Origin: Rhytidiadelphus loreus | Lineage: Eukaryota > Streptophyta > Bryopsida > Hypnales > Hylocomiaceae | Assembly (NCBI GenBank): GCA_947034895.1 | Contig: OX344763.1 | Span: forward strand, 48,731,025-48,795,024 | Direction: 5' to 3' | Length of the DNA stretch: 64,000 bases | Shown here: in pieces, positions 10,700-55,240 of the stretch | How the letters are laid out: each line of letters opens with the position of its first letter | How positions within the stretch are numbered: position 1 is the first letter of the stretch | Notes under the pieces: generated by a model | Database searches by the model: none | The model's input: the letters and a program-made list of their open reading frames with translations, nothing else | What the model was told of the DNA's origin: nothing | Program-made: the position numbers and the translations under genes

Positions 10700-11700
10700 A
10701 AAGGGATGCCATTCAGGTCAGTGCAACCTGAAATGCATTAGTAGAATGTTGATTTCGAACATGACTTTTTAGATCGGATCAACCTAAATTGCACACCAAT
10801 ACTATATATTTTTTCAAATTGTAATGTAGGTGTGGGACACAAAATTGAAGATATGCAATTCAGGTTGGTCCAACCTAAAATGCATTAGTGGACTATTGAT
10901 TTCCGACATGGCGTTTAAGGTCGAATCAACCTAAATTGCACACCTATATGAATGAACTTTTCCATATAGAAACCTTGTCTTGAGACTTCGAATTGAAGGT
11001 ATGCAATTCAGGTCGGACCAACCTAAATTGCACTTCTATACTTATGGTTTTTTCATATATAAATCTAGACGAGGGATTTGAAATTGAAGGCATGCAATTC
11101 ATGTTGGTGCAACCTTAAATTCATTTCTAGACAATTGATTTCCGAAATGACATTTCAGGTCGGACCAACCTGAATTGCACACATATACTAATAAACTTTT
11201 TCATATAAATACCTAGTCGTGAGAATTAAAATTGAAGGTATGCAATTCAGGTCAGACCAACCTAAATTGCACATTTATACTTATGGTTTTTTCATATATA
11301 AATCCAGACGAGGGACTCAAGATTTAAGGCATGCAATTCAGGTCGGTGCAACCTGAAATGCATTTCTAGACTATTGATTTCCGAAATGACATTTCAGGTC
11401 GGACCAACCTGAATTGCACTCATATACTAATGAACTTTTTTATATAGAAACCTAGTCGTGAGACTTCGAATTGAAGGTATGCAATTCAGGTCGGACCAAC
11501 CTAAATTGCACATCTATACTTATGGTTTTTCATATATAAATCTAGACGAAGGACTCAACATTGAAGGCATGCAATTCAGGTCGGACCAACCTAAATTGCA
11601 CATCTATACTTATGGTTTTTCATATATAAATCTAGACGAAGGACTCAACATTGAAGGCATGCAATTCAGGTCGGTGCAACCTGAAATGCTCGTCTAGCAC
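10700..11700 (-). promoter_or_regulatory. Array A1: about 13 copies of the element A palindrome
   Basis: Copies at roughly 10,711, 10,768, 10,855, 10,916, 11,008, 11,097, 11,155, 11,242, 11,337, 11,395, 11,483, 11,575 and 11,670. Consensus: TTCAG, then GTCGGACCAAC, then CTGAA or CTAAA, followed by TTGCAC or ATGCAT; inner symmetry is AGGTYG/CRACCT. Three motifs plus spacers make a higher-order unit of about 240 bp, and an almost exact tandem of about 97 bp lies at 11,480-11,680. The array is immediately upstream of the transposase start, so promoter or protein-binding function is likely. Element B has a matching array with a different core. Confidence 0.85.
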
Positions 11701-12622
11701 ATTGGATTTCTATGAATTTAGTGTAGTAACATGTTTTCATTTATAAATCATAAATCATTTCTAAAAATAGATCCGTATTTTACGGAAATCCATTCACACT
11801 TAGGCATTCCTCGGAATACAGAAAAGAAGAAGCTCACAATTGAAATTCCTTGAATGCACTGCAACTGATTGACTACCTACAAATCAAGAGTACGATGTGT
11901 AGAACAAAACATAAGTGCAACGCAGAAATCACTCCAACAAAGTGTTAGAATTCAATCTCATGTGGGAGGACATTATCGGTACCTGCAAGATCAAGACGCC
12001 TACTTCAACAATGACTCGCTCCAGAAATTGAAACAACAACATCAAGAAACTAGAAATTGAACCAAATTTTGAGGGAGCGAAGAGGTGGACGACAAAAAAT
12101 GGAATGAGAGTACGCAAACACAGAAGCCACAAGCGAATGCACAACGTTTTGGCGCGGGGGGGAAAGATCACGCCAAATCAGAAGAGATAGTTCAACTTTC
12201 AAAAATTATTTTGGAAAGATTCGCCTTCTAATTTTTAGCACGTTTTCACGCAAAAGTACTTTCGGGATAAGTGCAAGCCGTCATTCCTTGGAAGATTCTT
12301 CTTCCATTTGACAACAAACTATACACATATTTTCCGGGAAAGACTTTCTTTTGGAGATTCTTCTCCGTATTTCCAGTAAGGGAGAATGCCAAAGTCAACT
12401 CTTTTTCGTGAAGTACCAGCCTCTACAAAGCACCATTACTGCACAATTTTATAAATAGAACAATACATTTCAAAATTAGATGATACATTTCCAGGCATTT
12501 TTTCTTCCGCTTTCCAATAAAGCAAGTGTAAAACACAACTTGAATTTCCAAAAGTGAAAACTTTGTTTTGAATTTAATGTTAATTTTTCAAAATTTCAGA
12601 ATTCTGATTTCAAGCTTCAAAC

Positions 12623-12653
12623 TTAGGGTTTAGGGTTTAGGGTTTAGGGTTAG
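12623..12653 (+). repeat. Interstitial TTTAGGG telomere-type tract
   Basis: Four to five tandem TTTAGGG units, the standard plant telomere repeat. Short AAACCCTAA teloboxes are common in plant promoters, so this may be regulatory rather than a telomere relic. Element B carries a degenerate tract at a comparable distance from its left end (45,305-45,340). Confidence 0.85.
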
Positions 12654-12980
12654 GAATCTCTTTTAAAAAAACTACTTGAAATATTCTAAATGGAAAAAAA
12701 AGAACTCAGAAATCATAAAGAAGAAACTGAAGAATCCAAAAAAATATATGCAAACATGTGGTGGCAATTATTTTTAAATTGCACTTATTCTTAAATTGCA
12801 AGTATTCTTAAGTTGCAATTATTCTTAAATTCATGGATCCAAAAAAATATTCATTTGGTGAAAACATTGAATGACCTTGTACATGAAATTAGAAATAGGT
12901 GCACAAACCTTGCGCTCTAACTTAATGTCCACGAAAATTGGAACTTGTGAAATTCACCCATGAAAGTTTTATGTAAAACA

Positions 12981-13320
12981 TGTTGTAGAAGTTGCAATTA
13001 TTCGTGAACACAAGAATTCAAAAAAATATGCTATTGGTGGTCACTTGCAATGACCTTATTTTAGAAACGAAAAATTGAAGCAAGAAGCTGCCATGTACTT
13101 TCATGTCCAAAAAAATATAAAGTCATGAAATTCACGTCGGAAACAAATGGGAAACATGTTGTAGAAGTTGCAATTATTCGTGAACACAAGAATTCAAAAA
13201 AATATGCTTTTGATGGTCACTTGCAATGACCTTATTTTAGAAACAAAAAATTGAAGCAAGAAGCTGCCATGTACTTTCATGTCCAAAAAAATATGCAATT
13301 GGTGGTCATAAAGAACATTT
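12981..13320 (+). repeat. Direct repeat, period about 176 bp
   Basis: Two near-identical copies starting TGTTGTAGAAGTTGCAATTA at 12,981 and 13,157. Both contain a GGTCACTTGCAATGACC inverted pair and an AAGAAGCTGCCATG block. A third, partial start of the same word series lies near 12,800. Noncoding. Confidence 0.8.
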
Positions 13321-14639
13321 AAAATATTAAAACTACTCAAACTAATAATATCATTGGGTTCGATTTAACTTCAGAGTATTGTATATACTAATAGTAGGGG
13401 CCTTGAACTCTGAATGTGAAAATTTTAATAAAAAATTATCTTCATGGATTGTTACTTCTAGCAAATAGATTTAAATACAAATGTTTTTTTGAATAACCTT
13501 CACCTTCGATGGAATGATTTGGCAGGACAGGGCGGGACAACCATGCGTGAAGTTTGGCCTCCAATTTTGGGCTCCATCTTGACCTAAGTTAAATATAGCT
13601 CTGCGGTGGCTAACCAAACTAATGTATTGTACACAATGCAAGCTTATGCAAACTGATCAGTGATTTTGTTTTTACTTTCCTCTGTGCATTCAATTGATAT
13701 AATTAGTTCAGATAGTAGCATTTGCAGAAGGAGTCCACGTTTGGTCTTGACTAATTCTTGGCACTTGTCCCCCTCCTGTTTTATTTAGATAATTTTTTTT
13801 TTTTCATTTTCTATGAAATGGCAAAGTGTGGATATTAAATGTTATAGTTGTGCACTATGTTTCAACATTCATCCATGTATTGGATTTTAAATTATAAACT
13901 ACGCATCTATAATCCTATTTTCATTTCTAATGTGCTGATTTTCTTGAACTAGGAGTGTAAGTGGCAATTTCATCCAAAATTTTACTAAAAATTTCCTATA
14001 GCTTGTGTTGGCCCAAATTTTTTTGGTACTTTTGAGCACCAAATTGCCCAAAATATACACATTGAATGATGTAGATACCCGCTTTCACATAATGTATCAC
14101 CAATATATCTAAACATGGTGGCAGGTTCATTAAAATCTAATATAAGGTAGTGTGCTCTAAAAGCGCCCACCTTCTTCAAATTGTCCCTGTTTTGAGGTGA
14201 ACAATGGAGACATGGTGATCTTTAAGTGGACCACTCTAGCAATTAAGTGCATTGAGAAAAAAATTAGTTTTCTACTGCAAGAGCCAATCATTGCCTTTGA
14301 TTTTTTCACATTTGTTTACAAATTGCAAGTCGAGAGATTTTGGGGGACCTATGGTCACAAATAGGTGCCTATGCCTTGAATCTTTGAAAATTTATAAGTA
14401 AGCCGAAAATACTTGGAAAAATACAAAACCACTTCTGTTAGTTTCCACATCCATTTTTTTTTCTCTAAAACATGGTCTAAAAATAATTCTGTCCATGTAA
14501 TCCTATAAAAAAGGCGGACCAACTCTTAAATGGTGCATACTACCTTAACGAGTGAAAGAATGGTTGTCTTCCATCTGAACCTCCAAACAAAACAATTGCC
14601 CCATCCACTCACGCCCCGCCACGTGTCCAGGTGGTGGGG

Positions 14640-15610
14640 AGGCACTGAGAAAGTGCGTAGGGTGACTGAGTGATCCGATTACCGGTGCTCGAGCAAGTGC
14701 GTAGGGTGACTCTATGATCCGATTACCGGTGCTCGTGATTCTCGTTGCTCGGTCTTTGAGCGTCGGAGCTAGGGTTTGGTGTGTCGGTGTTTGAACGACG
14801 GAGTTGGATTTTTTTGGCGAATTTTATTTCCATCGATTTACGGTGCTCGTGATTCTCGGTGCCCCGTGTTTGAGCGTCGGAGCTAGGGTTTGGTGTGCCG
14901 GTGTTTGAGCGACGACGGTGGGTTCTGTTTTGCGGATTTTATTCACCGATTAACGGTGCTCGTGATTCTCGGTGCCCCGTGTTTGAGCGTCGGAGCTAGG
15001 GTTTGATGTGCCGGTGTTTGAGCGACGGCGGTGGGTTCTGTTTTGTGGATTTTATTCACCGATTAACGGTGCTCGTGATTCTAGGTGCCCCGTGTTTGAG
15101 CGACGAAGCTAGGATTTGGTGTGCCGGTGTTTGAACGACGGAGCTGCAGTTGGTTTTGGTTTGCGGATTTTATATCTCCACCGATTAACGGTGCTCCTGA
15201 TTCTCGGTGATTCTCGGTGCTCCGTGTTTGAGCAACTGAGGTAGGGTTTGCTGTGCCGGTGTTTGAGCGATGGAGCTGGTTTTGGTTTGCGGTTTAGGCT
15301 CTCGACCTGAGTCTTGGTGCTCGATTCTCGTGTGTGCGTAGGGTGATTGTCTAATTGAGCGACGGAGCTGGGTTTTGTTTTTTTGTTTTTCTCTCTACCG
15401 ATTACCGGTGCTCCTGATTTTTGGTGCTCGTGATTCTCGGTGGTCAGTGCTCGATTCTCGTGTGTGCGTAGGGTGATTGAGCGACGGAGCTAGGTTTTGT
15501 TTTTTTGATTTTCTCTCCACCGATTACCGGTGCTCGTGATTGTCGGTGCTCGCTGTTTGAGTAACTGAGCTAGGGTTTGCTGTGCCGGTCTTTGAGCGAC
15601 GGAGCTGGGT
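14640..15610 (+). repeat. GC-rich tandem array, about 113-130 bp unit, upstream of gene 1
   Basis: At least five units, each containing GATTACCGGTGCTCGTGATT or a variant, TTTGAGCGTCGGAGCTAGGG and GGTGTGCCGGTGTTTGAGCG; unit starts near 14,761, 14,874, 14,989, 15,101 and 15,231, then more degenerate ones. Each unit carries a TAGGGTTT word, a telobox-like promoter element. The array ends just before the predicted first noncoding exon of gene 1. Element B has a different GC-rich repeat at the equivalent place (47.5-48.4 kb). Confidence 0.7.
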
Positions 15611-17852
15611 TTTTGTTTTTTGATTTTCTCTCCACCTATTTTCTCACGCACTGCCTCCACGTTCTGTTCTTCTGTCGTAGGTAGGGTTCGAAATTACTCA
15701 GAATTGTTGTGGCTCGGAGTTCTGGTGGCGGGTTCGGAATTGCGGTGGCTGTTGGCGGTGTTCGAAATTCTGCTGGCGGTGTTTGGAAGGGGGCGGTGGC
15801 GGTGGCGATTTCTGAGCATTCGAAGAAGGTGAGTTCGTTTTTTCAGTTTGCATTGAATTCCAGCTGTTTGGTGGTCTCTTGTTTGGTGGTCATTGTTCTT
15901 GTCACCTGGAAACGGGCAGCTTTCAATTCCTGGTCATTTTTCTTCTTTGAATTCCCGGGCTCCTGTTTGATTGAATTTCCAGCCTTTTTGTTTCAATTGT
16001 CGGGTGTATTGTATTGCTTCAAGTTGGGCGCTTGTTTCAATTCTAGGGCAGCTGCTTCTTCCAATTCCAGGCTCCAATTCCAGCTGTTTCTGTTGTTGTT
16101 GGGTTTGTTCAATTATGTTTTTGTTGATGAAGTCTGTGTGTCACTTGATTGCTTGTTTGTTTCAAGTGTTGGGCGTTGTTTGAGACTTTGTAGTACAATG
16201 TGGATTCGAAGCTCAGTTTGATGTAACAAAGCTTAGTATTAGGATTTACATCTGACAATTAGGTCCATTTAGAGATTGTCAATTTCGTGGTTTAGGGTTT
16301 AGGTTTGTTAGATATTAGTGTATGAGATTCTTTGAAGATGTGGAGTTGCTTGCTGACTATTTTGTTTAGGGTTTAGGCTGCCTTATTGGTTGGTTGTTTT
16401 GCTTGCTTGTTTATTGATTTTTTTTTTTTTTTTTTTTTTTTGCTTGCTTGTTTAGTGTTTTTTCTGGATTTTTTTTTAGTTTCTTTGTAAATGTGTGAGT
16501 TCCTTTCTGAATTTAAAGTTCTTTTTGAAATGAATGATTGTGTGTACTTTGGAATTGTGCAAACGCTCATATAAGATTCTCTTATTTTTAATTTAGCAAT
16601 TTCTTTCAAATTTGAATGCTGAATTTGTTGTGGATATTGAAACTGTTGCAGGAATTGGAGCTCCGTGCGTCTTGGCATATCAGAAGTTTGACAAGTTCAT
16701 CTCTTGTTAAGTTTGCAGGTTAGTTAGAATGCTCATTATTCAAGCAACATGCAGTATGTGGATAATGTCTTCGGGTTTAGAGTATTAGGGTTCAAACTGT
16801 AGGTTTCAGTTTGCCATTCTAGGGTCTCGCATTCAGGTCTTAGGGTTCAGCAAACCCCCAAACTATATTTTTCATCGATTTCCAGTAAATATCAGTGGTC
16901 TATATTCCGGGTATTGAAGGATATCACAAGGTCTTAGGCGGATATCGAAGGATCTTAGGTGGATTCCATAACCCGAATTATCTTAGAATAACAGAAGTTG
17001 TTGTCAAGCGAAACGCAATTCAGGTTGCACCAACCTAAAGTGCACACCTTCCAGAACTAAATGGAGGAGCTCCTCGATCCCGTACTAGATAAAACTTCTA
17101 ATACACAAAAACCTGATTTCCATATCCCCGCCCAAAGCAATTCAAGTCGAACCGACCTAAAACGCACACCTTCCTCAGGTTAATTGACAAGCTCCATGAT
17201 CGTAAACATGATTGTAGTGCAGTCACACATAAACTCAGATCCCTAATCCCCACCCAGAGCAATTCAGGTCGAACCGACCTAAAACGCACACCTTCCTCAG
17301 GTTACTTGACAAGCTCCATAATCGTAAACATAATTGCAGTGCAGTCAGACATAAACTCAGATCAATAATCCCCACCCAGAGCAATTCAGGTCAAACCGAC
17401 CTGAAACGCACACCTTCCTCAACTCAATTGAGAAGCTCCTTGATCTAATACATGATTGAACTCAAGTCACAAATAAACCTAGATACCAAATCACCGCTAC
17501 GAGCAATTCAGGTCGAACCAACCTGAAGTGCACACCAACCAAAACCAATTCGAGATGCTACACAATCCCTTACTAGATTATGCTTCCTTCCCAGGTCAAT
17601 ATAACATAGAGAACATCCAAAAATACAGTAGTAAGCATGTAAATCGATGAAGATTTCCACCAATTACCTATCGATGATAGTGAAATATAGGTCGGACCGC
17701 GCTGAATATCAAATAGAAGAGGTTTCTAACGAAACTTGATACCGCAAAAATGAAATAACCATTGTAGCTTCAGTCCTGGGTATATAATGACATTTCAGGT
17801 CGAACCGACCTAAAATGCACACTCGCCTAACCCGTCTAATGTCTTGTACAGG
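15611..17852 (+). promoter_or_regulatory. Predicted 5' leader with noncoding exons, gene 1 of element A
   Basis: A probable noncoding exon ends at a donor GGTGAGTTCG near 15,828, matching the donor GGTGAGTTCG near 48,117 in element B. A second small exon probably lies near 16,650-16,715 (acceptor GTTGCAG before GAATTGGAGC), again mirrored in B near 48,545-48,620. The final acceptor (TACAG) sits one base before the start codon at 17853. The long open frame at 15,709-16,221 is hydrophobic and compositional, not conserved, and not called. A poly-T tract is at 16,417-16,441. Confidence 0.5.
17011..17820 (+). promoter_or_regulatory. Array A2: six element A palindromes upstream of gene 1
   Basis: Copies near 17,015, 17,140, 17,264, 17,384, 17,505 and 17,793, most in a tandem unit of about 122 bp with CACACCTTCCTCA spacers. 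The core here is more symmetric than in array A1: AGGTCGAACCGACCT within CAATTC flanks. The last copy ends 30-odd bp before the gene 1 start codon. Confidence 0.8.
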
Positions 17853-19296
17853 ATGGACGACATTACCAAACTTCTCAATTGTTACTTCAAGAAAAGAGAA
17901 GACATTGAACCCGAGGACGTCAGCAATGACGAAATGATGATAGAAGGGGACTGGTGGGAGTTCTCAAAAACCTAAGGAAGTGGAGTCATGGACCCTGAAA
18001 ATGGTGCCCTTTAAAGACAATATGCACTTCAATATGAAGTACAAGAACTCAGCCGCATACTTGCCCCTGACCTTCGACGAGAAGATGAAGCGGATCACCC
18101 CCGACATTTTCCCAATTATTAAAATCCACTACGTAACAACAAACAATGATCGCACCCCCGAGCAGTAATATCACTTCACGCTTCTCTTGAACTCCGAGAA
18201 GATTATTTTCAACATATCGCCTTTCCTCTAGAGCCTCGAACCAACACCATACAGTGTCGAACTAAAGCAGTTGGAGCAAAAGATGGATGCCGGTGAATAC
18301 GAGAATCAAGATGGACCTCCCCTGAATGGAAAGCGTCTGTGCACAAAGCTCACACTTCTCATGAATTCATTTCTTGTCTTCAAGGATAAGCATGATATGT
18401 AATGATCGTTCATGACTCCCCAAACCGTCTCCATAGAAAATATTAGCCAATCAGAAGGGCAACCATCAACAGGACGTAAAACCCATGGATCACAAAGTCG
18501 GGGAAGCAAAAATAAGAAACCACCAGTAACTCCTAGGTCTGTAACACCGGGCAGTCCATTAGCAATACTGTCGGCAAAGAAATCGGCAGAGAAAACATCC
18601 GAACAGTCTGGCCTTGACTCGGTGAGCTTAATGGAGGAATTCAACACGGTTCCTGAAGCGCTTAGGACAAACTAGAAGCCCAACTATAAAATTGTGAGCG
18701 AGATGTACAAGAAGTATTGGGAGACGTGCTCAAGTGCATATATCTTTGGTGCGGAAGAAAAAAAAGAGCTTCCCATAGAAAAATTGATTGCTGTTCCGGC
18801 TGAGTTCAACGTCCGCGTCAAGGAGGACACAATTGTACAAGAGCAGTTGAATTACCTTGTCAATATCCCGGACAAAAGCACGAAGCAGACACTTTGCGTA
18901 ATGCCAGTCCTGCGGGCTGGGAACAGGAGGCAACCCAAAAGCTGGGATGAAGTCAAGGATGGCATGTTCTATATCATCAATGGACAGCACAGTGTGGCAG
19001 CTAGTAAACTCATGATGGAGGAGGGAAGTGGTGTAAGTGATGATGTGAGGCAGTACTTCAAGACCTGGAACTGCTTCATTGTTTGGTCTTTCAGTGCAGA
19101 GAAGTTGAGGTCCATCTTAGCCTACTACAACCGTGTCAACCATTTCCAGGTTATTCAACCGTCGTGGGTTACTAACATTCTTGGTGCAAGATCAGTTTGG
19201 ATAGCTATGGGTAGATCGAAGCATCCAAAAGGAGATGGAAGTTCCTCATCAGGGTTGAGCCGCAGAGAGATCACTTCCTTAACGACCAAGTTCAAG

Positions 19297-19420
19297 GTGA
19301 GTAATTCATGTCGGACGACTTGAATTGCATCTCCTGAAGGAGAAATGGCTTTTGTAATGATATCTTGTAGATTTTCTTTTTAAATGACCACCTCACTAAT
19401 AGTTGAGGTCTGAACTGCAG
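19297..19420 (+). promoter_or_regulatory. Intron 1 of element A gene 1 with one palindrome
   Basis: GT-AG intron containing a degenerate motif near 19,305 (CATGTCGGACGACTTGAATT). The homologous intron in element B (51,017-51,136) carries a B-type palindrome at the same relative place. Confidence 0.7.
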
Positions 19421-20773
19421 AAATTCGAGAAAGCCATCACTCAGCGTTTTGCATTGATTGATGTCAATAAGAACCATTTGCTTGCAAAAAAGAGAGGTGG
19501 TGACGACAAGTTAAAAATTGTAAACGAGCTAAAGCTCATTGCTGCACCCGATGATTTGTTTAAGCTGTGGAGCGACGTAATCATGAATGCTGCTCTAGGC
19601 GAGCTATACGACCCCGACACCAAGATGAAGTTCAACGAGCGGGAGAACTGGAAGCAAGAAAGCTGTGCGCTAAGCCGGGACTTCTTCAAGCCGCTTGGGA
19701 ATTTGACATATGACGACATGAGGAAAATGGCGAGACACATTCTCAATCGTTCTGGTCCCAATCGAACACACCTATATCCCAAGGTCACTATCAAGCCTAT
19801 AACTTCAGTCCTAGTGAGTTGCTATAGCTCAAAGGACTGGGTGGAGAGGGTCAAGCGAAAAATGATGGTCAAGAAAGAGATTCACCTCCTCGCCCCAGAA
19901 CTAGGCCTATTCAATGCAAATGGTGAAATCCTTGTTGAAAACTGGAGATCTTTAAAGAGAAGTCGTCTTATCACAAGTGCGACAATGAACTTGCTCCTCG
20001 AGAGGCCGGGTGAAGCATACTTCGCCACGGGCAAGCAAGTCAAAGCAAGAAACAAGACCGCTGTAAATATATCTCCAAAGGCAGCGGAATTCTTCAAAGT
20101 CTTTCTCCAGAAGAAAATGGAGTTCCAAGCACCGACGGGAGTTGCTCATATGCGACCTTATAGCATCGGAGAAAATAAACACTTCGATTGGCCGGCGCAT
20201 ATGTGGACGACAGACACGGCAAGTAAAATTCTTCTAGGAGTTATTGACTTCAGGTCGATTCCAGGGGTGCTAGAGAAGGATGGTTCCACCATTGACCATC
20301 CATTCTTCTACGAGGCGTTATCGTCGTTGTAGGAGAAGAAAGAACCCAAGTTGGAAGAAATCAAAGCGTGGTTGTTTATTGTCGCTGATGAGACCGATTA
20401 GTCTCAAGTACTTGTATATGTGGAGAAGAATAAAGGTCTTAGGTCCTTCAATCGATGTTTCTCCGATTATTACCCGGCAAAGACTGAACGGCTATACGAT
20501 CTGCCTTCAAATTCTGCAAAAGCCCTCAAGAAAGTCCGCCTCATTTTTCTCCAGAGCAAAGACAACGCATTCCAGGCTCGAATTGATCCAGAATTTCGAG
20601 CTCCGGAAACCATCGTTTACAAGGATTCAAGAAGGTTTGATGAACTTCCGTTTTGAATGTACACAATGGAGCTCCACATGGAGTTTTACTTGTGGCTCAT
20701 CAAGATGTTTTGTCTTCCGGGATCTAGTGTTCTCTCAGTCTTTGCGGGATCAAAGCTGACATGCGCTGCACTT

Positions 20774-23466: not shown

Positions 23467-23522
23467 GTCATTGTCTAGGGGGATTTAGGTGAGGTGAACT
23501 GTCATTTTTAGTCTTGTTCATT

Positions 23523-29443: not shown

Positions 29444-29449
29444 TCCAAG

Positions 29450-43204: not shown

Positions 43205-43289
43205 GATCCCTGGACGAAAAGAATTAACCACAAGCATTAGAATTGGTCGAGGACCTGACGCAGGGTGGCCAACATAGAAATCGAATTAC

Positions 43290-45304: not shown

Positions 45305-45340
45305 AGGGTTTAGGGTCTTAGGGTTTGGGGTTTAGGTTTG
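45305..45340 (+). repeat. Degenerate telomere-type tract
   Basis: GGGTTTAGGG, TCTTAGGG, TTTGGGG and TTTAGG in succession, 5.4 kb from the left end of element B; element A has its tract 5.7 kb from its left end. Confidence 0.7.
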
Positions 45341-45833
45341 AAGAGCCACGCAGAAATTACAAATAAATTACTTCTCATACCTATTAAGAAAAATAAAATT
45401 TACGGTTCCAGAACTTCAATCTTCTAACATACAAAATGCGTAAGTAACAAAAAAATCCGCATGCTTGCCCTTTAATTTTAGGGTTCTTGTAATCTCTATT
45501 CAAACCAAAAGAATAAAAAAATAGTGCAAATGCAAAAAATGCAAGGAAGATTGAAATTGCGAAAAAAATTATGTAGCGAACTTTACAATTTAGTATGCAA
45601 AATATTTCGTGAAATATTCCAAGACAATTCAAAAATTACATACGCAATTGAAAGTCTCCATTTTTAGTATATTTAAAACAATAAAGGACATGTAAAAATC
45701 ATGAAGAACTCCAATTCAATGTGAACATAATACAAACATTATACATCCTACTAAAAAGTATGAAATTTTAAGCCAATGAAAAAAAAATATTGAATGTAGA
45801 AGTTTGAAATGGACTAAATCTCAATCATTCGAT

Positions 45834-46268
45834 AAAATATAATGTTCAAGTTGCAAACGGCCGAAGCACTTGCAACATGTAAAAAAAATAGGATTTGCAT
45901 AATTGTATGGAAATGCAAACAAGAGTAAAATAATGGAAAAGAGAAAACACACGTGTGAGTCCTGTACTTTGAAGCCCACCAATCACAAACTCATGGAATT
46001 TGTACGTGGAAGAGTGAAAAAAAATATAATGTTCAAGTTGCAAACGGCCGAAGCACTTGCAACGTGTAAAAAAAAATAGGATTTGCATAATTGTATGGAA
46101 ATGCAAACAAGAGTAAAATAATGGAAAAGAGAAAACACACGTGTGAGTCCTGTACTTTGAAGCCCACCAATCACAAACTCATGGAATTTGTACGTGGAAG
46201 AGTGAAAAAAAATATAATGTTCAAGTTGCAAATGGCCGAAGCATTTGCAACGTGTAAAAAGAAATAGG
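45834..46268 (+). repeat. Tandem repeat, period 187-188 bp, about 2.3 copies
   Basis: AATGTTCAAGTTGCAAA recurs at 45,841, 46,028 and 46,216, followed each time by CGGCCGAAGCACTTGCAAC or a close variant. The copies are almost identical, so the duplication is recent. Confidence 0.85.
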
Positions 46269-46284
46269 ATTTGCGTAATGGAAA

Positions 46285-46630
46285 TCCAACAGACAGGTGC
46301 AATTATTACCGCCTACTGATTCAAATCCAACCTAATTGTAGGTGCAGTTATTTCTGGCTAGTAATTCAGATCCAGCTTACATGTGTAGTTATTTCCGAGT
46401 AGTGATTCAAATCCAACCTAAGTGTAGGTGTAAATATTTCCATATTATAGTAATTCAAATCCAACCTATAGGTGCAATTATTTTCAACTAGTGATTCAAA
46501 TCTATTCAAATCCAACGTAAGTATTGGTGTAACTATTTCTGACTAGTTATTAAAAAAAGAATAGGTAGGACCATTTATTCCCAAGGAGTGATTTGAACTA
46601 AACTTGTAGGTGCAATTATTTTTTATTACA
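46285..46630 (+). repeat. Degenerate array of about 60-bp units
   Basis: Repeated pattern AATTCAAATCCAACCTA, GTGTAGGTGCAATTATTTC, in about five to six diverged units. Noncoding. Confidence 0.65.
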
Positions 46631-47559
46631 ATTTTTTATTTCTGGCTACATTTTTTGAATCTAGGAATGTTGTTTTTCAAATTTGTGAAGATTAGAAATG
46701 TCAAAATTTGAAGAAGAGTAGGAATGTGATTGAAAAGTCTTTTCTAGTCCAAGAGATGGATGAATGCTGAAATGCAATGCTTCACCAAATCTTAAGCGAT
46801 CGCTGTCTTGGCGTTTTCTAAAAAACCAAAAAAAGGGCTAATTGTGACCATGCAATTGTACGCATTAGACGTAAGAGCCTACTTTGATTGGGTTGGGTAT
46901 TTGTGTGTTGTACTAGTGACAAGGATCAAAGATTTTGTAAATTTTTTGGAGGGTCCGGGTATGGTTTTTGGATATGGTGCCCACGTATGGGGTCTGCATA
47001 TGATGTCCGGGTATGGAGTCCGGTTTTGGTGTTTGGTTTTGGTGTCGGGTTTTGGTGTCCACGTATGGGATTTGGGGTATGGAGTCCGGATATTGTAAAT
47101 TTTTTTGAGGGTAATGTAAATTTTTTTGATGGTCTGGGTATTAGGGTTTAGGGTATGGGGTTTTTTGTATGGGGTTTGCATATGATGTCTGGGTTTGGGG
47201 TCCGGGTATAAGGTCCGGGGTATGGTTCCGGATATGGGGTACGGGTTTAGTGTACTTGTGTAGGGTTCCGGTATGGGGTTTTAGGGTATTGTACTGCTGT
47301 CAATCCTCTCTCCCACTTCCTTCCTGCCAGGGCACCGGCGCTTCCGGATCCTCGTGCATTTGTCAGGAATTACTTTAGTTTAGGGTGTCGGTCGTCGTTC
47401 GTTCCGTTTGAAGTGGAAGTGGGGGGACGTCAAAGTGTGCGGTTTCGAGCTGTTTTTTTGCATTGCGTAGTTTTTCGGCGTTGAAGGGAAGATTTTGGAT
47501 CTTTCAAGCTGCACGTGGACTCACATTTAGAAACCAGAACGCCAGCACGAGGATCGGAA

Positions 47560-48440
47560 TTTCGGTGTTTTTGGTTTGATTGTTCCGCACAAGGCGCGGG
47601 TTCGACGCTCTGAGCATTTTCGGTAATTCCTTACGCTGTTTTTTGTAAGATTTGCTTTGGGTTCGGAAGTTCGGGGGTTAGGGTTTGATTGCGGTCGGGC
47701 GCAGAAGGCAAAGCATGGGGGTGAGCATTTCCGGTAATTCATTACGCTGTTTTTTTGTAAGATTTGCTTTGGGGACGGTTTGCTTTGGTGTCGGAAGTTC
47801 GGGGGTTAGGGTTTGATTGCTGTTCCGCAGAAGGCAAAGCACGGGGGTCGGAATTCCTAGGTTCAGGGTTTGATTGTTCCGTAGAAGGCAAGGGTTTGTC
47901 GGTCTGAACGTATTCCAAATTTTTAGCATTGTTTTCTAGAAGAGTTGCTTTTCTGATTCCTCCCATGCGCTGTGTTCTGCTTCGTGATTCAACTGCGGAG
48001 AAGGTACGAGAAGGTCAGTTCTTGTGTGGATTGAGGTTGGCGAAGGTTGGTAGGAGCAGCTGACGACAGACATAATCTATTGCGGTGTGGCTTAGGCAAA
48101 CTGCAGAAGAGCAGCGGTGAGTTCGTTTTCATTCTTCTTGTTTTTCGGTGACGGGAGTCGGGGAGTGGCTTCGGGAGTCGTCAGGATGTATCAGGAGTGC
48201 TGGTGATGGGAGTGAGAGTGTCGGGAGTGGAGGCGTCGTGTGGTGAGGACGTATCGTGAGTGGTGGTGGCGTGGTGAGTGGTAAGGACGTATCGTGAGTG
48301 GTGAGAACGTATCAAGAGTGGAGGCGTCGGGAGTGGGAGTGGTGGTGTTATGACTAGTGAGGACGTATCGGGAGTGGTGGCGTCCTGAGTGGTGACGACG
48401 TATCGAGAGTGGTGGTGGCGGTAGTGGTGAGCTGGTTACA
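47560..48440 (+). repeat. GC-rich repeats upstream of gene 1, element B
   Basis: Two blocks. 47,560-47,960: repeated GGTTAGGGTTTGATTG, TTCCGCAGAAGGCAA and GCACGGGGGTCGGAATT units. 48,160-48,440: repeated GGTGAGGACGTATCGTGAG words about every 30-40 bp. Position matches the GC-rich array of element A, but sequence differs. Likely promoter and leader region of gene 1. Confidence 0.6.
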
Positions 48441-48540
48441 ACTCGGTTGACTGCAGTTTCTTTAGTTTCATACTGCAGTTACTTTAGTTTCATACGATTT
48501 TCTTCATAAATTGTAACCTTCCGTGAATATTTAATTCATT

Positions 48541-48620
48541 GCAGATTACTACTAAGCGGCTGCGCAATCTGGAACTTTGAAGTACAGTAGAATCCGAAGC
48601 TCCTCCGTGTAGCATTCAGG
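48541..48620 (+). other. Predicted noncoding exon of element B gene 1
   Basis: Acceptor TTGCAG before ATTACTACTAAG and donor CATTCAG/GTGCGTAAAA near 48,620. An upstream noncoding exon probably ends at the GGTGAGTTCG donor near 48,117. Both positions are mirrored in element A. Confidence 0.45.
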
Positions 48621-48889
48621 TGCGTAAAAATTCTTCCTTTCTTCATTTATTCCTTGTATGCTGTCAATGTGTCCTTGCAAACGGGTCTCATGCTTGTGCT
48701 GTCAGCATTGCAAGCAAGTCTTATGTTTGTGTGTTGTTACCATAATGAAATTGAATCCAGATGGATCTTATCGCAATGAAATCCAAACTATGCATTGCCC
48801 TAAACGAGAAACCCTAAAAAATTTGAACAGAAAAACCAGCGACAGGAAGGGAAAAGAAGTAGTAAAAATCCCAGAAACCCTAAACCTAG

Positions 48890-49500
48890 AGTGCGCAGAT
48901 CAGCGCGAGCTGCGCTGAACAGTTACATAGGACTCCCCAGAACGAGATCGGGTCTCGTAACTTCATTAAAAATAAAAAAGAAGACATCAGGCAAACATAC
49001 AGATATACCAAAGCAGCATATCAACGCGACTCGCGCTGATTCGACACACCAGACACTGAAATTGACGAAAGACATATGCTACTCGGAACATAAATAATAA
49101 TATCAAAAACCATAGAAAACAACATACGTAAAGCGATTAGCAAGATAATAAAGACAAAAGCTCAACATGACCGAAGATATCAAATAAAATCAACCTTAAC
49201 AAAGAAAAAACTATAAGAAAATTAAACACCGAAAACGGATCAGTGGGAGTCGCGCTGATCCGTAAAGTAGTTTGCAGAGCTACACATTCATAGACAAAAC
49301 CATAGATTTAATTGGAAGACAGTAGGAGCGACCGGCTACTCAAATTCACTAGCTGTACACGTAACTATGAAGAAAAATATTTCTAAGGTGAGTCCGTCGA
49401 TAGATAGGACGCTAAATACAAAAAGGAAATCAAGAATCTCAAATAGATTAATAACAATGTCAATTCAGAGCGACTCGCGCTGAATCGACAGACAGTACCA
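48890..49500 (+). promoter_or_regulatory. Array B2: four element B palindromes upstream of gene 1
   Basis: Copies near 48,898 (ATCAGCGCGAGCTGCGCTGA), 49,020 (TCAACGCGACTCGCGCTGA), 49,238 (TCAGTGGGAGTCGCGCTGA) and 49,464 (TTCAGAGCGACTCGCGCTGA). Counterpart of array A2. The intron before the start codon holds them. Confidence 0.8.
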
Positions 49501-51016
49501 CTCATGTGAAACTGTGAAATTCTGTGCGGTGTGGCTAACAATAATCTAAATATTTTGCAGAATGGAGGATCAAATGGCATCATTGAACATGTATTTCAAG
49601 AAATGTGAAATCCAGTTCGCAGATGATCCCAATGAGGTCGACCCATCTCTCCTCGAAGGAGAATTCTGGGAATTCAAAGAGCCAGAGCGAGTAGAGTCCT
49701 GGGGACTAAAAATGATCCCCTTCCGAAACAATTTCTGCTTCGCATACAAGTTCAAAAACGCGGCAGTTTTCCTGAACTTGTCATTCGAAGAAAAGGTCAA
49801 GGATGTTGAAGCTGATGCCCATCCCCTCGTCAGAATCAAGTGCGTGACAACAATACCGCAAGTCGAAAGCAATGAGCAGTATTACTTCGCAATCTGTTTA
49901 GACTCCGTCCTGATTCCGTATGTCATGACTCCTCTTCTTGAGAGTCTAGAGCCAACTCCATACAGCGCTAAAGTAAAGGAACTAGAAAAGAAAATAGACA
50001 ATAATGAGTGGCTCAATGCAAATGGCACACCACTGGTATGGAGAAAACTCGTTTCCAAACTCCGCTCCTTGTTCAGTGATTTTGATCAGCTGAAAAAAAA
50101 GCTTGCAATGCAGAACGAGATGAGCCGGCCGAGAACCGTATCCGTGGACACTCTCAATAACAGTGGTAGTCAGGCCTCAAAGCTGAACGCAACACAAGGA
50201 TCCGCAGGCATTCGCGGGACCAAGAACACTAAGAAGTTGCCAGAAAAGATGCTTGACAAAACGAAAGGAAAACAAAGTAGGGCGTCCCAATCATCGAAGA
50301 TGATACTGTACAAGTCCTCAGAGGTGTCCGAAGTTGCCGACGTGAGTTACGCTGAGGAAATGGCAATGGTTCCACACTCCCGAGCAACAGAGAAGAAGCC
50401 AGATTATGCAGAGGTGAGCAAGGTTTACCAGCAGTTCTGGACCACCTGCGAGGACGCCTTCTTGTACCTACAAGATGATAAGAAGGAGATTGACATCTCG
50501 TAGCTCATCCCGCCCCCTGCCACATTCAATATTCGTTCCCAAGAAAACCGAATTATGGAAGACTTAGTGAACTAGCTACTAAATATGCCCGACAAGAGCA
50601 CGAGGCAGACGCTGTGTGTCATGCCGGTAAAGCAACCCGCCAGACCAAAGGAATGGTCAGGGATCGAAAAAGGCAATTCTTACATTATTAATGGCCAACA
50701 CAGTGTGGCCGCAAGTAGGTGGATGATGGATGATGTTAACAAAGTCAATAAGAAGGAGAGAGAGTACTTTAGAAAATGGAAGTGCTTCGTTGTATAGACA
50801 GAGGACGCGGAAAAGCTCCGACTCATTTCTGCATTCTACAACAGAACCAACCACTTTCAAGTGGCCCAGCCATCATGGGCGACCAATATCCTTGGAGTGC
50901 GGACAGTCTGGGAGACTATGGGGAAGCCAAAGAATCCGACGCAGGTAGCGTCTGTCGGCACAACAACGGCGACGAAGAGAACCGTCGAAGCAAGAAGGAA
51001 CAAGGAATCCTTCCAG

Positions 51017-51136
51017 GTAAGCATATCAGCGCAGCTCGCGCTGAACTGCACGTTGTGGTTTGGTCAATTTAGTTCCATTCACCTTAACTAAAATGGGAAC
51101 ACGTTGTTTGACAAGTGCTCTATACACTGAATTCAG
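51017..51136 (+). promoter_or_regulatory. Intron 1 of element B gene 1 with one palindrome
   Basis: B-type motif near 51,022 (ATCAGCGCAGCTCGCGCTGA), at the same place as the degenerate A-type motif in intron 1 of element A. Confidence 0.8.
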
Positions 51137-52483
51137 GATTTTGAAAGAGCCGTTTTCTTGCGGTTCTCTCTAATTGACGTGAACAAGAACCTCCGCATTG
51201 CGAAGACAAAAAAAAAGGAGGAGAAACTCAAGCTCACTAACGAGATAAAGTTAATCACGGCTCTGGAGGAGGTTTATAAGCTATGGAGTGAGGTAATATC
51301 CGCAGCAGCATTTCGAGAGCTCACAAATCCTAATACGGAGAAGAAGTTCAACGCTCGAGTTGGATGGAACCCAGAGAGCTGCGTTCTCAGTCGCGAGTTT
51401 TTCAAGCATCTTGGAAATCTGAGCTATGATGAGTTGGCCACACTTGCCAAGCACATGCTCAACCAGACAGGCTTGAAGCGCACCCACAAATATCCGAAGG
51501 TAACGGTGAAGGCGATATCATCAGTGCTGGAGAGCTGTTACACCGCGGGGGAATGGTCCGAAAGGCGGAAGCGCAAACATTTGGTGAAGAAGGAGCTTCA
51601 CCAAATTGATCCGGATCTGGGTCTTATGAATGCAAAGAACGAGATCATCGTAGATAACTGGAAGGCGTTCAAAACATCACGCATGTTCTCAAGAGCAACA
51701 ATGGACATCCTCTTGGACAGGCCTAGGGAAGTCTACTTTGGAAGGGCGAAGTCAACTAGTCAAAAAAACAAGACCTGCGCCGAGCTTTCCCCGCATGCTT
51801 TTGAATTCTTCAATGCATTTCTGCACCATAAGAATAAATTTGAAAAACCGACAGCCGTGGCCCACTACCGCCCCTATGTAGAGGCCTCAAACGTCATCAT
51901 GGAGTGGCCAAGACGTTCATGGACGCCGGAAACAATAACGAGAATGTCATTGGGCGTGATTGACTTCAGGACTTTGCTAGGAATTGAAAACAAAGAGACT
52001 TCAAATACCAGCAGTCCATACTTCAAGGAAGTAATGACCTCGCTGCGCAAGAAGAAGGACCCGGCTCTTCAGGATGTAACATCCTGGCTCTTCATTTGCG
52101 GAGATGAAAAGGAACAATCACAGGTCATTAAATTTGTAGAGTCAGACGAGGTGCTCAACTCCTTTGGTATAGACTTCTCAATATACTCTGCATACAAACA
52201 TGATCGCCTCGGGGATATCTCGGTGTCCCATAAGCCACCGAAGGTGCTTCTTGTTTTTCTTCAAAGTCCATCAAACTCATCCTTAGTAACTATTCCTGAT
52301 GAGTTTATTTGCCTGGAAACAAACCGGTATGTGAAGGCACGTGCATACAGTGAACTCGAGTACCGGATTCACAGTCTTGAGCTACGCATGGAGTTCTACT
52401 TATGGCTCGTCAAGGAATTCTGCACTCCTGGAAAGTATGTCTTTTCGGTATTCACTGGAGGGAAGTTGACATGCGCAGCAGTG

Positions 52484-52658
52484 GTAAGTCCTGTCACCGC
52501 AGATCAGCGCGACTAGCGCTAATTTGCACATTGTCTTTCCATGAATTTCCATTGATCCTTGACCCTGCTTGTCAATGATTTTTACAGTTCAGCTCCTATC
52601 GCGCTGAATTTCTTTCTGGTGTGACAAGTTCATAACGCTCCTCGTTTGTCATTTGTAG
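52484..52658 (+). promoter_or_regulatory. Intron 2 of element B gene 1 with two palindromes
   Basis: B-type motifs near 52,502 (ATCAGCGCGACTAGCGCTAA) and 52,588 (TTCAGCTCCTATCGCGCTGA). Same number and order as in intron 2 of element A, whereas the remaining intron sequence has little similarity. Confidence 0.85.
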
Positions 52659-53687
52659 ATGTTGTCCGTTGACGTGTATGCTATTGGGCTCTCCGATGAA
52701 TCCAATCATTGGGAGCAGATCTGTACTCGTGCTTATACATTGGACAAGGCCGATTTCCTAGAGAATGGATACCCGACCAGCAATGCAGGAGGCCGTAGTT
52801 CCTCCACGAAAAGGAAATTGAGGTCCAGTCAGAAGTCCCTCGGAAAGATGAATCGAGCTCCGATCTACGAAGACGTCGAGGATCTATCATCTGACGACGA
52901 AGACGAAGATGACGATGAAGAGGATTACGATGAAGACGTCGGCATAGAGGAGATGCCTACACCAACCCGACGTTCGAACGATGTACCGGGTTCGTCAGCT
53001 TCATCTATGCTTCCTCCCCTCTCGCAGACACCGAGGACTCCTATTGCATCTGGGCGGCTTCTGAAGAAGAGAAAGAGGGACACAATCACCAGTGTCGTGA
53101 AGCAGATGGCCGACATTCAAAGGCAGACTGCACTATCTTTGGAAACAATGCGTCAACAGGCCGAATTGCTGCAAAAGCAGACCGAGCTAGCGATGGCTCA
53201 ACTGAGGGCCGATAGCGCGAACGAACGTCTGCAGAACATGGAGATGCACAAGACCAACACGGCGTGGATGCGGGAGGAGTCCAAGCACAACCGGGAACTA
53301 CTGCAGTTGTTAATGACCAAGGTTGGAATCGAGCCAGTCGCACAACTTCATCCCGCTGCACATTCACCGCCGATGCTGCTGCAAGGGCAGCCCTCAAGCT
53401 CCAATATCAGCAATGCATCAAGCCCGCTGGATCTTGCAAATGTGCCTCCACCTCTGCCTACTGAGATACCTACCCCTGTTCCGTTACCACCTGCGAATAA
53501 TGTACCTATAGCGAGAGAGCCCGACGCTGTCCAGAACGATGACACGGAGATCGCTATGAGCAACGTTGGGGTTGGGCTCAACCTGGACGAGTACTCTTCC
53601 GAGGCGGAGCTCGGAAGTGCTGACCAAACCGTTGACGACGCGCCTACAGGTTGTAACCAATGACCATTCAGTGTGCATGTGTGTAAT

Positions 53688-53710
53688 TTCAGCGCGACAC
53701 GCGTTGATTT
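53688..53710 (+). promoter_or_regulatory. B-type palindrome after gene 1
   Basis: TTTCAGCGCGACACGCGTTG, 25 bp after the gene 1 stop codon, within the presumed 3' untranslated region or gene 2 promoter. Confidence 0.75.
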
Positions 53711-53904
53711 GTATTGTAGAGATTGAGATGTAGATATTATTGTAGATAGTCCAGTCGTCTTTTTTGTTGGAGCTCCACTTCAAGTGGTTGCAGCCAAGGT
53801 TTTCAGATGATCTAGACAAAGTTTTGTAAAATGAAAACTCATTTCGTGAGATTGTAATATATAGATTTCTCACGGACATTGATTTTTTCATTATTGAATC
53901 GCAG

Positions 53905-55132
53905 ACCCTGTGAATCTACAATCCCTGCCTAAGGAGGTGACTTCTGTTGTCGCTTATTGTAATCCACAGGAAACTTTGTCCCCTCCGGACGTGCAAAAGT
54001 CACAACCATTTGTTGAGCAGTCTGCATCGTTGGCTCTAGATGCAGCGCAATTGGAAAACGATTTGACCCATCCAATCGTGGAAGAATCACAACTGAGTGT
54101 TGAGCAGTCTGCATCGTTGGCTCCAAAACCAGCGACATTGGAAAACGATGGTGAACCATCAGGCTTTACGCGGAGGAAGGTAAAATGCGCTCTTCAATTC
54201 TGATGGCTTATTAGATTTTAATCTCCTTTTCAGCGGTGCTGCATCATGGACTTCGTGTACTATGGGATGGCCTTGGCATTCAACCAGTTCCACGATCGTA
54301 ATTGGACACAATTTCGTCGGTTTGTTAGCAGGGGCCTGATATTACGGTCCCTGATATGGGATCCTCGGAGGGAGTCCATAGGTCATTGAGGTCCGGGCTG
54401 GCGGACAAGTGGATCAACGTTGTCCTAGACCTCAATGGCATTCTATGTGTTACAGAAGATTGGAAGTCCAAGGGGTCCGGCAAAGTGTACAACCAAAAAT
54501 CGGAGCCGCACTCAGCCACGATTGGCACCATCGTAGGTCCCAAGGCTGTCTACGTCAGGCCTAATTGCTCCACGTTTTTGAAGGAGTTAGAGAAGATAGC
54601 ATTCGTGTCAGTATGGAGTTTAATGAAGAAATCCACCACTGAAGAGATTTCTGCATATCTCTTCCGACATGGAGGGTCTCCCTTTCAAATTCTGGGTCAG
54701 GGCTCCTGCAAAACGGTTAAGTGCTGGGATGGAGCCGGCATGTGGATCCAATATAAAGAACCGGGAACAGACAAAGCATTGTTCTTGAAAACCCTGGATG
54801 CTCTTTTCGGTGAGTTGCGAACGAGTTTCGCACCTGAGAATACCGTTATTGTGGACGACAGCCCTCGGAAGCACATTATGAACAACCCACACAACGTCAT
54901 ACTCTCGGATTCCTGGACTAACAAGGGAAATGGATCCAAGGGCACATTTTTGCTCGCTGTTCTACTTCCTTGGTTTCAACAGTTGCACCAGAGCCGTGAC
55001 TTGGGACTCAAGTGCTTCCGCCAAGTTAAGAAGTGGAAAATCGGGAGGAAAATGATGTGCGAGGAAAGGAATCATCGAGAGTACGACGAGCTCATGGAGA
55101 TTGTTCGGAGGTCACCTAGTGGTACTAGATAG
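53905..55132 (+). CDS. Element B gene 2: FCP1/NIF-like HAD phosphatase
   Basis: Exons 53905-54179 and 54332-55132 join in frame. Exon 1 starts at an acceptor (CGCAG) and has no ATG of its own, so an upstream exon or a start at ATG 54356 (258 residues, MGSSEGVHRS) is needed. Exon 1 repeats EQSASLA twice. Phosphatase domain: NVVLDLNGILC (Asp nucleophile, Asn at the usual second Asp), VYVRPNCSTFLKELEK, FVSVWSLMKKSTTEE, FQILGQGSCKTVKC, KEPGTDKALFLKTLDALF, NTVIVDDSPRKHIMNN. Order and spacing fit plant NIF/FCP1 homology domains, which remove phosphate from Ser/Thr. No stop or frameshift in the domain, so it may be functional. Next to a small SP-motif gene; two B-type palindromes follow. Confidence 0.8.
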
Positions 55133-55141
55133 TTGGAGGTA

Positions 55142-55240
55142 TGCAGTTCAACGCGAGTGGAGCTGATGTCTAACATTTGCAAGCGTCGTACAGTAGTTTT
55201 GTATTATTGACGTTCCAACTCGGGTCGCGCTGATTTGCAA
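55142..55240 (+). promoter_or_regulatory. Two B-type palindromes between genes 2 and 3
   Basis: Near 55,144 (GTTCAACGCGAGTGGAGCTG) and 55,216 (AACTCGGGTCGCGCTGATTT), both degenerate. Matching interval in element A has three. Confidence 0.65.

What the first reader, a model, noticed from the sequence alone, without database searches (positions are those of the whole stretch)
10700..55240. Two sister transposons use the same palindrome frame with different 11-bp cores
In element A the repeated site is TTCAG, GTCGGACCAAC, CTGAA followed by TTG. In element B it is TTCAG, CGTTGGTCGCG, CTGAA followed by TTG. Outer arms and spacing are identical; only the core differs, and each core is confined to its own element. 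This is what a switched binding specificity would look like: the site and a cognate element-encoded protein evolving together. The logic resembles VANC proteins and their motifs in Arabidopsis VANDAL elements (established), but the proteins here are unrelated (inference).
Basis: partly seen in the sequence, partly recalled or inferred. Interest (0 to 1): 0.95.

Follow-up and report, generated by a model that had tools for sequence, protein, structure and literature searches.

The report
Moss transposons with switched palindrome sites
Two related transposons, likely from a moss, each carry about 25 copies of a 21-letter mirror-image DNA site in their non-coding parts, with the same outer letters but a different core in each; the sites are likely where a protein made by the element itself would land, its target having changed along with it.

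Summary
Confirmed, and larger than reported. Two whole transposons lie in the window: A (6954-24963, TSD GGTA) and B (39917-56285, TSD CATT), sharing TIR AACACTATATTC. A carries 26 and B 25 copies of a 21-bp TTCAG-N11-CTGAA palindrome; in the matrix scan none of the 51 overlaps coding sequence and none lies outside the elements. The switch is in the half-site: TTYAGGTYGG in A, TTCAGCGCGA in B, mainly positions 6-7. In the introns, sites keep similar offsets while cores changed and flanks became unalignable. DUF7869, the candidate transposase, is 70-77% identical between A and B; gene 1 only 45-49%. Database ORFs reading into gene 1's first intron show the site in 28 of 31 cases, with further cores (AT-like, CT) that broadly follow the gene-1 tree. 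Exceptions exist: one B-like site in A, and mixed sites elsewhere. The anatomy parallels VANC and its motifs in Arabidopsis VANDAL elements, with unrelated proteins. Binding by gene 1 and anti-silencing are inferred. The host genome could not be searched: that tool did not complete.

The parts
6954..24963 (.). Element A, whole transposon (18,010 bp)
   Evidence: TIRs and matching 4-bp TSD GGTA
6950..6953 (.). TSD of A, left copy GGTA (right copy 24964-24967)
6954..6977 (+). A left TIR, AACACTATATTC...
24940..24963 (-). A right TIR
7715..10546 (-). A DUF7869 gene, candidate transposase (in-frame stops at 8429-8431 and 7892-7894)
   Evidence: PF25273 E=9e-43; ORFs; tblastn with B
10712..11685 (.). 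A array 1, 13 palindromes upstream of the DUF7869 start codon, core about GTYGGWCCRAC
   Evidence: tandem periods 239 and 90-91 bp
17019..17814 (.). A array 2, 7 palindromes upstream of gene 1 (17686 is half B-like)
   Evidence: tandem period 122 bp
17852..22063 (+). A gene 1 (decayed: frameshift and stops), exons about 17852-19296, 19421-20773, 20989-21871 and beyond
   Evidence: splice sites inferred
19305..19324 (.). A intron-1 site, 20-bp decayed form, offset 8 from the first intron base; below the matrix cut-off, not among the 51
20792..20812 (.). A intron-2 site 1
20900..20920 (.). A intron-2 site 2
22085..22105 (.). Exceptional B-like / CT-core site in A (TTTAGCTCGACTCGAGCTGAT)
22694..23466 (+). 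A FCP1/NIF-like part, fused to gene 1 in 4 of 7 Physcomitrium patens entries
23522..23676 (.). A sites 23522, 23587, 23656 between the FCP1 part and the last ORF
23801..24512 (+). A last ORF, unknown function
   Evidence: 44% identical to B
39917..56285 (.). Element B, whole transposon (16,369 bp)
   Evidence: TIRs and matching 4-bp TSD CATT
39913..39916 (.). TSD of B, left copy CATT (right copy 56286-56289)
39917..39940 (+). B left TIR, AACGCTATATTCATTATAATGGGA
56262..56285 (-). B right TIR
40367..43204 (-). B DUF7869 gene, candidate transposase (in-frame stop at 42197-42199)
   Evidence: PF25273 E=4e-40
43307..44203 (.). B array, 15 palindromes upstream of the DUF7869 start codon, core about CGCGACTMGCG
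   Evidence: tandem periods 54, 108 and 220 bp
48899..49484 (.). B sites 48899, 49020, 49239, 49464 upstream of gene 1
49562..53663 (+). B gene 1, exons 49562-51016, 51137-52483, 52659-53663 (three in-frame stops)
   Evidence: splice sites inferred; P. patens relatives
51025..51045 (.). B intron-1 site, offset 8 from the first intron base
52503..52523 (.). B intron-2 site 1
52588..52608 (.). B intron-2 site 2 (weak score)
53688..53708 (.). B site between gene 1 and the FCP1 part, at the corresponding place to 22085 in A
54230..55132 (+). B FCP1/NIF-like part; motif I reads DLNGIL
   Evidence: PF03031 E=5e-14
55147..55234 (.). B sites 55147 and 55214
55379..56023 (+). B last ORF, unknown function

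Best explanation
Elements A and B are sister transposons whose non-coding parts are studded with 21-bp palindromes that differ between them mainly at positions 6-7 of each half-site, and these palindromes are likely the binding sites of the large fast-diverging element protein (gene 1 fused to an FCP1-like domain), which would have changed its target in step with them. Shown: the elements, the sites, their non-coding placement, the different core at corresponding places, and the faster divergence of gene 1. Inferred: a dimer of the gene-1 protein binds one palindrome, each subunit reading a 10-bp half-site and discriminating mainly by positions 6-7. Inferred: binding across introns, leaders and intergenic stretches keeps the element transcribed and free of silencing, as VANC does for VANDAL. 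Inferred: a new core spreads by tandem duplication in the arrays and by site-by-site replacement in introns, passing through mixed half-sites.
For: Whole elements with TIRs and matching TSDs. 51 sites in the matrix scan, all inside the two elements; 27 of 28 sites outside the training rows match their element. 0 of 51 overlap coding; in the gene-1 half of each element, where 75-79% is coding, all 8 and all 10 sites are non-coding (chance 2e-5 and 2e-7). Intron-1 site at offset 8 in both elements, first intron-2 site at 18 and 19, while intron flanks align within the range of shuffles; blastn at E 1e-8 aligns A with B only in coding DNA. DUF7869 70-77% identical, gene 1 45-49%, FCP1 part 60% (82% over a 39-residue piece). 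Read-through tails: 28 of 31 ORFs crossing the intron-1 donor by 9 or more residues carry a site-like peptide, shuffled mean 0.21, maximum 3; stricter pattern 24 of 31, mean 0.10, maximum 3. Core class on the gene-1 tree: 5 changes, shuffled mean 13.0, minimum 10 (30 labelled of 45 rows); position 6 over 34 of the 45 rows: 4 changes, mean 12.9, minimum 9; position 7: 2 changes, mean 5.7, minimum 4. All five rows read as CG lie in one clade supported 100/99. Half-sites vary independently, as expected for half-site reading by a dimer. Sites stay 3.4-3.8 kb from the left ends and 1.1-1.3 kb from the right ends, unlike subterminal transposase sites.
Against: No binding data for any element protein. 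No DNA-binding domain was identified in gene 1: no Pfam, NCBIfam or PDB match to its NGQH part or full length beyond the FCP1 part, and the AlphaFold model is unusable (mean pLDDT 34). The last ORF is as diverged (44%) as gene 1 and could be the partner. Site 22085 in A is B-like; P0167 mixes G-left with GCN-right; P0137 and P0241 mix C-left with GAY-right; A's nearest relatives P0173, P0180 and P0214 have A, not G, at position 6. P. patens-like copies carry both AT-like and CT sites in intron 1. P0170, inside the B clade, and P0160 and P0201 show no site. Clade tracking is partly common descent: with ten near-identical rows removed, 4 changes against 7.5 expected, and the lowest shuffle also gave 4. 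In B the two halves of a site agree slightly less than shuffled halves (166 of 250 against 175.7). Both window copies of gene 1 are decayed.
Confidence: 0.57

Rival explanations
1. The palindromes are binding sites of the transposase-like DUF7869 protein, used for transposition or self-regulation, as TNPA uses subterminal repeats in CACTA elements.
For: The largest arrays lie just upstream of the DUF7869 gene in both elements. Subterminal motifs of CACTA elements also diverge between families (PMC2613891, passages).
Against: Sites are 3.4-3.8 kb from the left ends and 1.1-1.3 kb from the right ends, none near the TIRs; they sit in introns and leaders; DUF7869 is the most conserved protein, 70-77%, while the sites changed.
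Confidence: 0.12
2. A host transcription factor or chromatin protein reads the sites, and A and B have come under two different host factors.
For: Nothing tested here excludes it; sites lie in leaders and introns like regulatory elements.
Against: Two elements in one genome would each need about 25 sites rewritten for a different host protein. Core class broadly follows the element's own gene-1 clade across copies. No site of the matrix scan lies in the other 30 kb of the window.
Confidence: 0.14
3. The sites act as RNA hairpins in introns and leaders (splicing, processing or small-RNA control).
For: Most sites are in likely transcribed non-coding RNA, and each could fold as a short hairpin. 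In the A array the mismatches are 19 G-U to 1 A-C on the minus (DUF7869 sense) strand.
Against: Half-sites within one site agree no better than half-sites swapped between sites (A P=0.51, B P=0.99). Sense-strand mismatches favour A-C over G-U elsewhere: 15 to 6 on the gene-1 side of A, 7 to 5 on that of B, and 18 to 9 in the B array.
Confidence: 0.07
4. Satellite drift: the arrays are tandem repeats that homogenised separately in each element, without a binding function.
For: The main arrays are tandem repeats with different periods (90-239 bp in A, 54-220 bp in B), and tandem repeats homogenise by themselves.
Against: Single sites in introns and intergenic DNA, outside any tandem repeat and with unrelated flanks, carry the same core class as the array, 22085 excepted; the intron-1 site persists in 28 of 31 other ORFs.
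Confidence: 0.06

Closest known systems
VANC proteins and their motifs in Arabidopsis VANDAL elements (PMC5735166, parts 1-3 of 6 read; PMC10398659, abstract and introduction read)
   Same: Short motifs repeated in introns, intergenic and other non-coding parts of the element; arrays formed as tandem repeats; motif differs between related families and is specific to each; transposase more conserved than the second protein.
   Different: Different transposon type (4-bp TSD, DUF7869), unrelated protein with an FCP1-like domain, a 21-bp palindrome rather than the 9-base YAGTATTAY, no sites found in the terminal regions, and no binding or demethylation data.
CACTA (En/Spm) elements with TNPA and subterminal repeats (PMC2613891, passages)
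   Same: A conserved transposase plus a poorly conserved second protein that reads repeated motifs differing between families.
   Different: CACTA motifs are subterminal and the TSD is 3 bp; here sites are internal and the TSD is 4 bp, and no CACTA transposase domain was found.
Physcomitrium patens 'FCP1 homology domain-containing' and DUF7869 proteins
   Same: Homologues of gene 1 (45-55% identical, 4 of 7 entries with the FCP1 domain) and of DUF7869 (59-71% among the P. patens entries listed).
   Different: Named only as domain-bearing, uncharacterised or predicted; no sites or function attached in what the calls show.

Membership tests
VANDAL / VANC | MULE-type transposase (VANA; type recalled) | tested here: not met
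   Pfam finds DUF7869, no MULE domain
VANDAL / VANC | VANC protein with DUF1985/DUF287 | tested here: not met
   Neither listed for the window's gene-1 pieces or 8 relatives
VANDAL / VANC | Family-specific motif repeated in non-coding parts of the element | tested here: met
   51 sites, 0 coding, 27 of 28 sites outside training of the matching type
VANDAL / VANC | Protein binds the motif and removes DNA methylation in trans | not testable with these tools
   needs bench work
CACTA (En/Spm) | 3-bp TSD and termini beginning CACTA | tested here: not met
   TIRs hold CACTA two bases in (CGCTA in B left), but the AACACTA boundary gives the matching flanks, 4 bp in both copies
CACTA (En/Spm) | TNPD-type transposase domain | tested here: not met
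   not among the Pfam hits
CACTA (En/Spm) | Motifs in subterminal regions | tested here: not met
   none of the 51 sites within 1.0 kb of an end
DUF7869 family (PF25273) | Pfam match above gathering score | tested here: met
   146.5 and 137.9 bits against a cut-off of 26
DUF7869 as DDE/D transposase | RNase-H-like fold with acidic triad | tested here: inconclusive
   model poor around the catalytic candidates, no fold match at E 0.001; D427, D430 invariant and D552, D594 nearly so in 33 aligned sequences
FCP1/SCP phosphatase (PF03031) | Pfam match above gathering score | tested here: met
   52.8 bits against 21.8; no PDB match by single sequence at E 0.01
FCP1/SCP phosphatase (PF03031) | Catalytic motif DxDxT (motif recalled) | tested here: not met
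   reads DLNGIL in A, B and the P. patens rows that reach it
ParB/parS-like | ParB N-terminal domain | tested here: not met
   INGQHSVAAS looked ParB-like by eye; no ParB match in Pfam, NCBIfam or PDB searches

The most novel reading that the evidence does not exclude
Mosses hold a second, independently invented sequence-specific anti-silencing system, unrelated to VANC: a transposon protein with a pseudo-phosphatase FCP1-like tail binds 21-bp palindromes through the element's introns and leaders, hooks RNA polymerase II by its CTD, and holds the element open. At least four specificities (CT, GT, CG, AT at half-site positions 6-7) exist, so element families escape silencing without waking each other.
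Probability: 0.35. Interest if true: 0.92.

Novelty: new variant of a known kind. Interest (0 to 1): 0.78.

Why it matters
Sequence-specific anti-silencing has been shown for the VANC proteins of Arabidopsis VANDAL elements; PMC10398659 (introduction read) sets it against global anti-silencing known in other TEs. An unrelated element with the same anatomy, likely in mosses, would mean the strategy evolved twice. The sites form a natural series of one palindromic frame with several cores, mixed half-sites among them, and gene-1 clades to go with them. That makes the question of how a DNA-binding protein and dozens of its sites change specificity together directly testable, in a plant (Physcomitrium) that is easy to engineer (recalled).

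Tried and rejected
Viral-contig scans with P0008, the DUF7869 alignment and the A-type palindrome found nothing usable; the gene-1 alignment was not conserved enough to scan with; PLSDB gave no match to P0008. AlphaFold of gene 1 failed (12-row alignment); DUF7869 (33 rows: the window and 32 of the 120 listed relatives) gave a partial model without a significant fold match. ParB/parS was considered because of the INGQHSVAAS motif and dropped. RNA hairpin, satellite drift and transposase-site readings are argued under rivals. Rfam lists nothing in the window at gathering scores. No paper in the library mentions DUF7869, and none holds VANC, 'binding motif', 'transposable element' and 'moss' together; a looser search listed 4 papers, none on moss anti-silencing by title and start of abstract.

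Limits of the read-through test: the site pattern was widened (Y, N, W, G, C allowed at two places) after I had looked at the tails; the stricter form gives 24 of 31. P0008 was left out of the 31 by the donor rule although it shows a CT site. The protein searches listed and fetched only the best 120 of 269 gene-1 relatives and 120 of 174 DUF7869 relatives. In the first label count, P0137, P0181, P0192, P0216 and P0241 were left unlabelled because mixed, one-sided or displaced, and winA was labelled from its whole element; one search adds those five and drops winA. Six more ORFs with mutated or cut-off intron-1 sites (P0135, P0139, P0143, P0148, P0203, P0227) were never put in the tree. The labels are my own codon readings; AT-like could be AC at some sites, and the species of most ENA, JGI and lgn ORFs is unknown. 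Outside the tails the widened pattern also matched 2 times in 9,837 coding residues and 6 times in 77,032 residues of DUF7869 relatives, one of these (P0056) ahead of its start region.
Full report
WHAT IS THERE. The window holds two complete, related DNA transposons. Element A spans 6954-24963 and element B 39917-56285. Their ends share the inverted repeat AACACTATATTC (AACGCTATATTC at the left end of B), and each is flanked by a matching 4-bp target-site duplication, GGTA for A and CATT for B. Both have the same layout: a DUF7869 gene on the minus strand near the left end (PF25273), a gene-poor centre of about 5 kb, then on the plus strand gene 1, an FCP1/NIF-like part (PF03031) and a last short ORF. 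In 4 of 7 Physcomitrium patens entries, gene 1 and the FCP1 part are one protein of about 1,500 residues. The few organism names shown among the relatives are P. patens and Ceratodon purpureus. The host is therefore probably a moss; this is inference. Both window copies are decayed: DUF7869 has two stops in A and one in B; gene 1 has a frameshift and stops in A and three stops in B.

THE SITES. TTCAG-N11-CTGAA occurs exactly 16 times against 0.19 expected. Matrices built from the two main arrays and scanned over the 64 kb find 26 sites in A, 25 in B and none elsewhere. Looser scans add a few hits outside the elements and one in B's coding DNA, about as many as expected by chance. The A half-site is TTYAGGTYGG and the B half-site TTCAGCGCGA. 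Position 6-7 is GT in 44 of 52 A half-sites and CG in 34 of 50 B half-sites; the intermediate CT occurs in both elements (5 and 6 half-sites). Among the 28 sites that were not training rows, 27 match their element. The exception, 22085 in A, reads TTTAGCTCGACTCGAGCTGAT, a CT core.

PLACEMENT. None of the 51 sites overlaps a coding interval (intervals drawn by me from ORFs and inferred splice sites). They lie upstream of DUF7869, upstream of gene 1, in introns of gene 1, between gene 1 and the FCP1 part, and just after it. None lies in the central 5.3 kb of A and 4.7 kb of B, nor in the outer 3.4-3.8 kb on the left and 1.1-1.3 kb on the right.

SAME PLACES, DIFFERENT CORES. The first intron of gene 1 has a site at offset 8 in both elements; the one in A is a decayed 20-bp form below the matrix cut-off. 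The second intron has sites at 18 and 126 in A and at 19 and 104 in B. With the sites masked, the introns align within the range of shuffled sequence. A blastn of the window against itself (E 1e-8, 60 bp or more) aligns A with B only in DUF7869 (76% over 2.8 kb), part of gene 1 (65% over 400 bp) and the FCP1 part (68% over 638 columns). So the positions were kept while flanks were lost and cores changed, in single sites as well as arrays. The arrays themselves are tandem repeats with different periods, so they likely expanded separately.

WHICH PROTEIN. Between A and B, DUF7869 is 70-77% identical, the FCP1 part 60% (82% over a 39-residue piece), gene 1 45-49% with a low-complexity end of 28%, and the last ORF 44%. 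The fast-changing large protein is the natural candidate partner; the last ORF is as diverged and cannot be excluded. No DNA-binding domain was recognised in gene 1.

OTHER COPIES. Many database ORFs run from exon 1 of gene 1 into intron 1, so the site can be read in translation. Of 31 ORFs crossing the donor by at least 9 residues, 28 show a site-like peptide in the first 40 residues, against 0.21 in shuffled tails, maximum 3; with a stricter pattern 24 of 31. In the coding parts of the same ORFs there are 2 matches in 9,837 residues, against 30 in 779 tail residues. Reading the codons gives further cores: AT-like (S-D-R-V-D-L-M and variants) in 12 P. patens-like copies, CG (S-A-R-L-A-L and variants) in four relatives of B, and CT (F-S-S-T-R-A-K, Q-L-E-S-S, Q-L-D-S-S) in distant copies. 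On a gene-1 tree the CG rows fall in one clade (100/99). Four core classes need 5 changes, against 13.0 in shuffles, minimum 10 (30 labelled of 45 rows). With the mixed rows added, position 6 needs 4 changes against 12.9, and position 7 needs 2 against 5.7 (34 rows); thinned of ten near-identical copies position 6 needs 4 against 7.5, and the lowest shuffle also gave 4. The tracking rests on few independent switches, and relatedness alone produces part of it. A's closest relatives have A, not G, at position 6; P0167, P0137 and P0241 are mixed; P. patens-like copies carry an AT-like and a CT site in the same intron. The CT core in the most distant copies and at 22085 suggests that CT may be the old form; this is inference. 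Six contig lengths appear in both the DUF7869 and the gene-1 hit lists (312168, 313938, 460842, 544549, 579495, 1005336; read by eye), which points to the two genes being linked elsewhere too.

HOW IT MOST LIKELY WORKS. I commit to a VANC-like reading: a gene-1 dimer binds the palindromes across the element's own non-coding DNA and keeps it expressed, each element family having its own half-site code. Hosaka et al. (PMC5735166, parts 1-3 of 6 read) show for VANC21 binding in introns, intergenic and terminal non-coding regions, a short motif in tandem arrays, and a different motif for VANC6, with a more conserved transposase. The anatomy here matches except that no sites were found in the terminal regions. 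The proteins do not match: no DUF1985 or DUF287 and no MULE transposase. It is not a VANDAL element; it would work like one. The FCP1-like domain has motif I DLNGIL instead of the recalled DxDxT, so it may bind rather than dephosphorylate the polymerase tail; this is speculation.

WHAT IS NOT SHOWN. Binding, function and genome-wide distribution are untested. The host genome could not be searched.

Noticed in passing
window 6189-6632 (+): A broken FCP1/NIF-like fragment (36% identical to B's) just outside the left end of element A, likely a relic of another such element; no palindrome of the matrix scan near it.
   Followed up: partly
window 28662-28883 and 29936-30187: Two fragments resembling the last ORF of the elements (39-45% identical), between A and B; no palindrome of the matrix scan near them.
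   Followed up: partly
window 3476-3984 and 59929-60412: An inverted pair of ~500-bp sequences, 77% identical, outside both elements.
   Followed up: no
window 54230-55132 and P. patens relatives: The FCP1-like domain carried by the element has DLNGIL where FCP1/SCP phosphatases have DLDxT (recalled), hinting at a non-catalytic domain.
   Followed up: partly
window 12976-13294 and 45834-46279: Each element's palindrome-free centre has its own near-perfect tandem repeat (176 and 188 bp, 97% matches).
   Followed up: no
window 12623-12651: About four copies of the plant-type telomere unit TTTAGGG inside element A.
   Followed up: no
window 2272-3195 (+): ORF with a RING-finger domain at the left edge of the window.
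   Followed up: no
window 5429-5721: Irregular C-rich tandem repeat built on GTCCA units, just left of the FCP1 relic.
   Followed up: no
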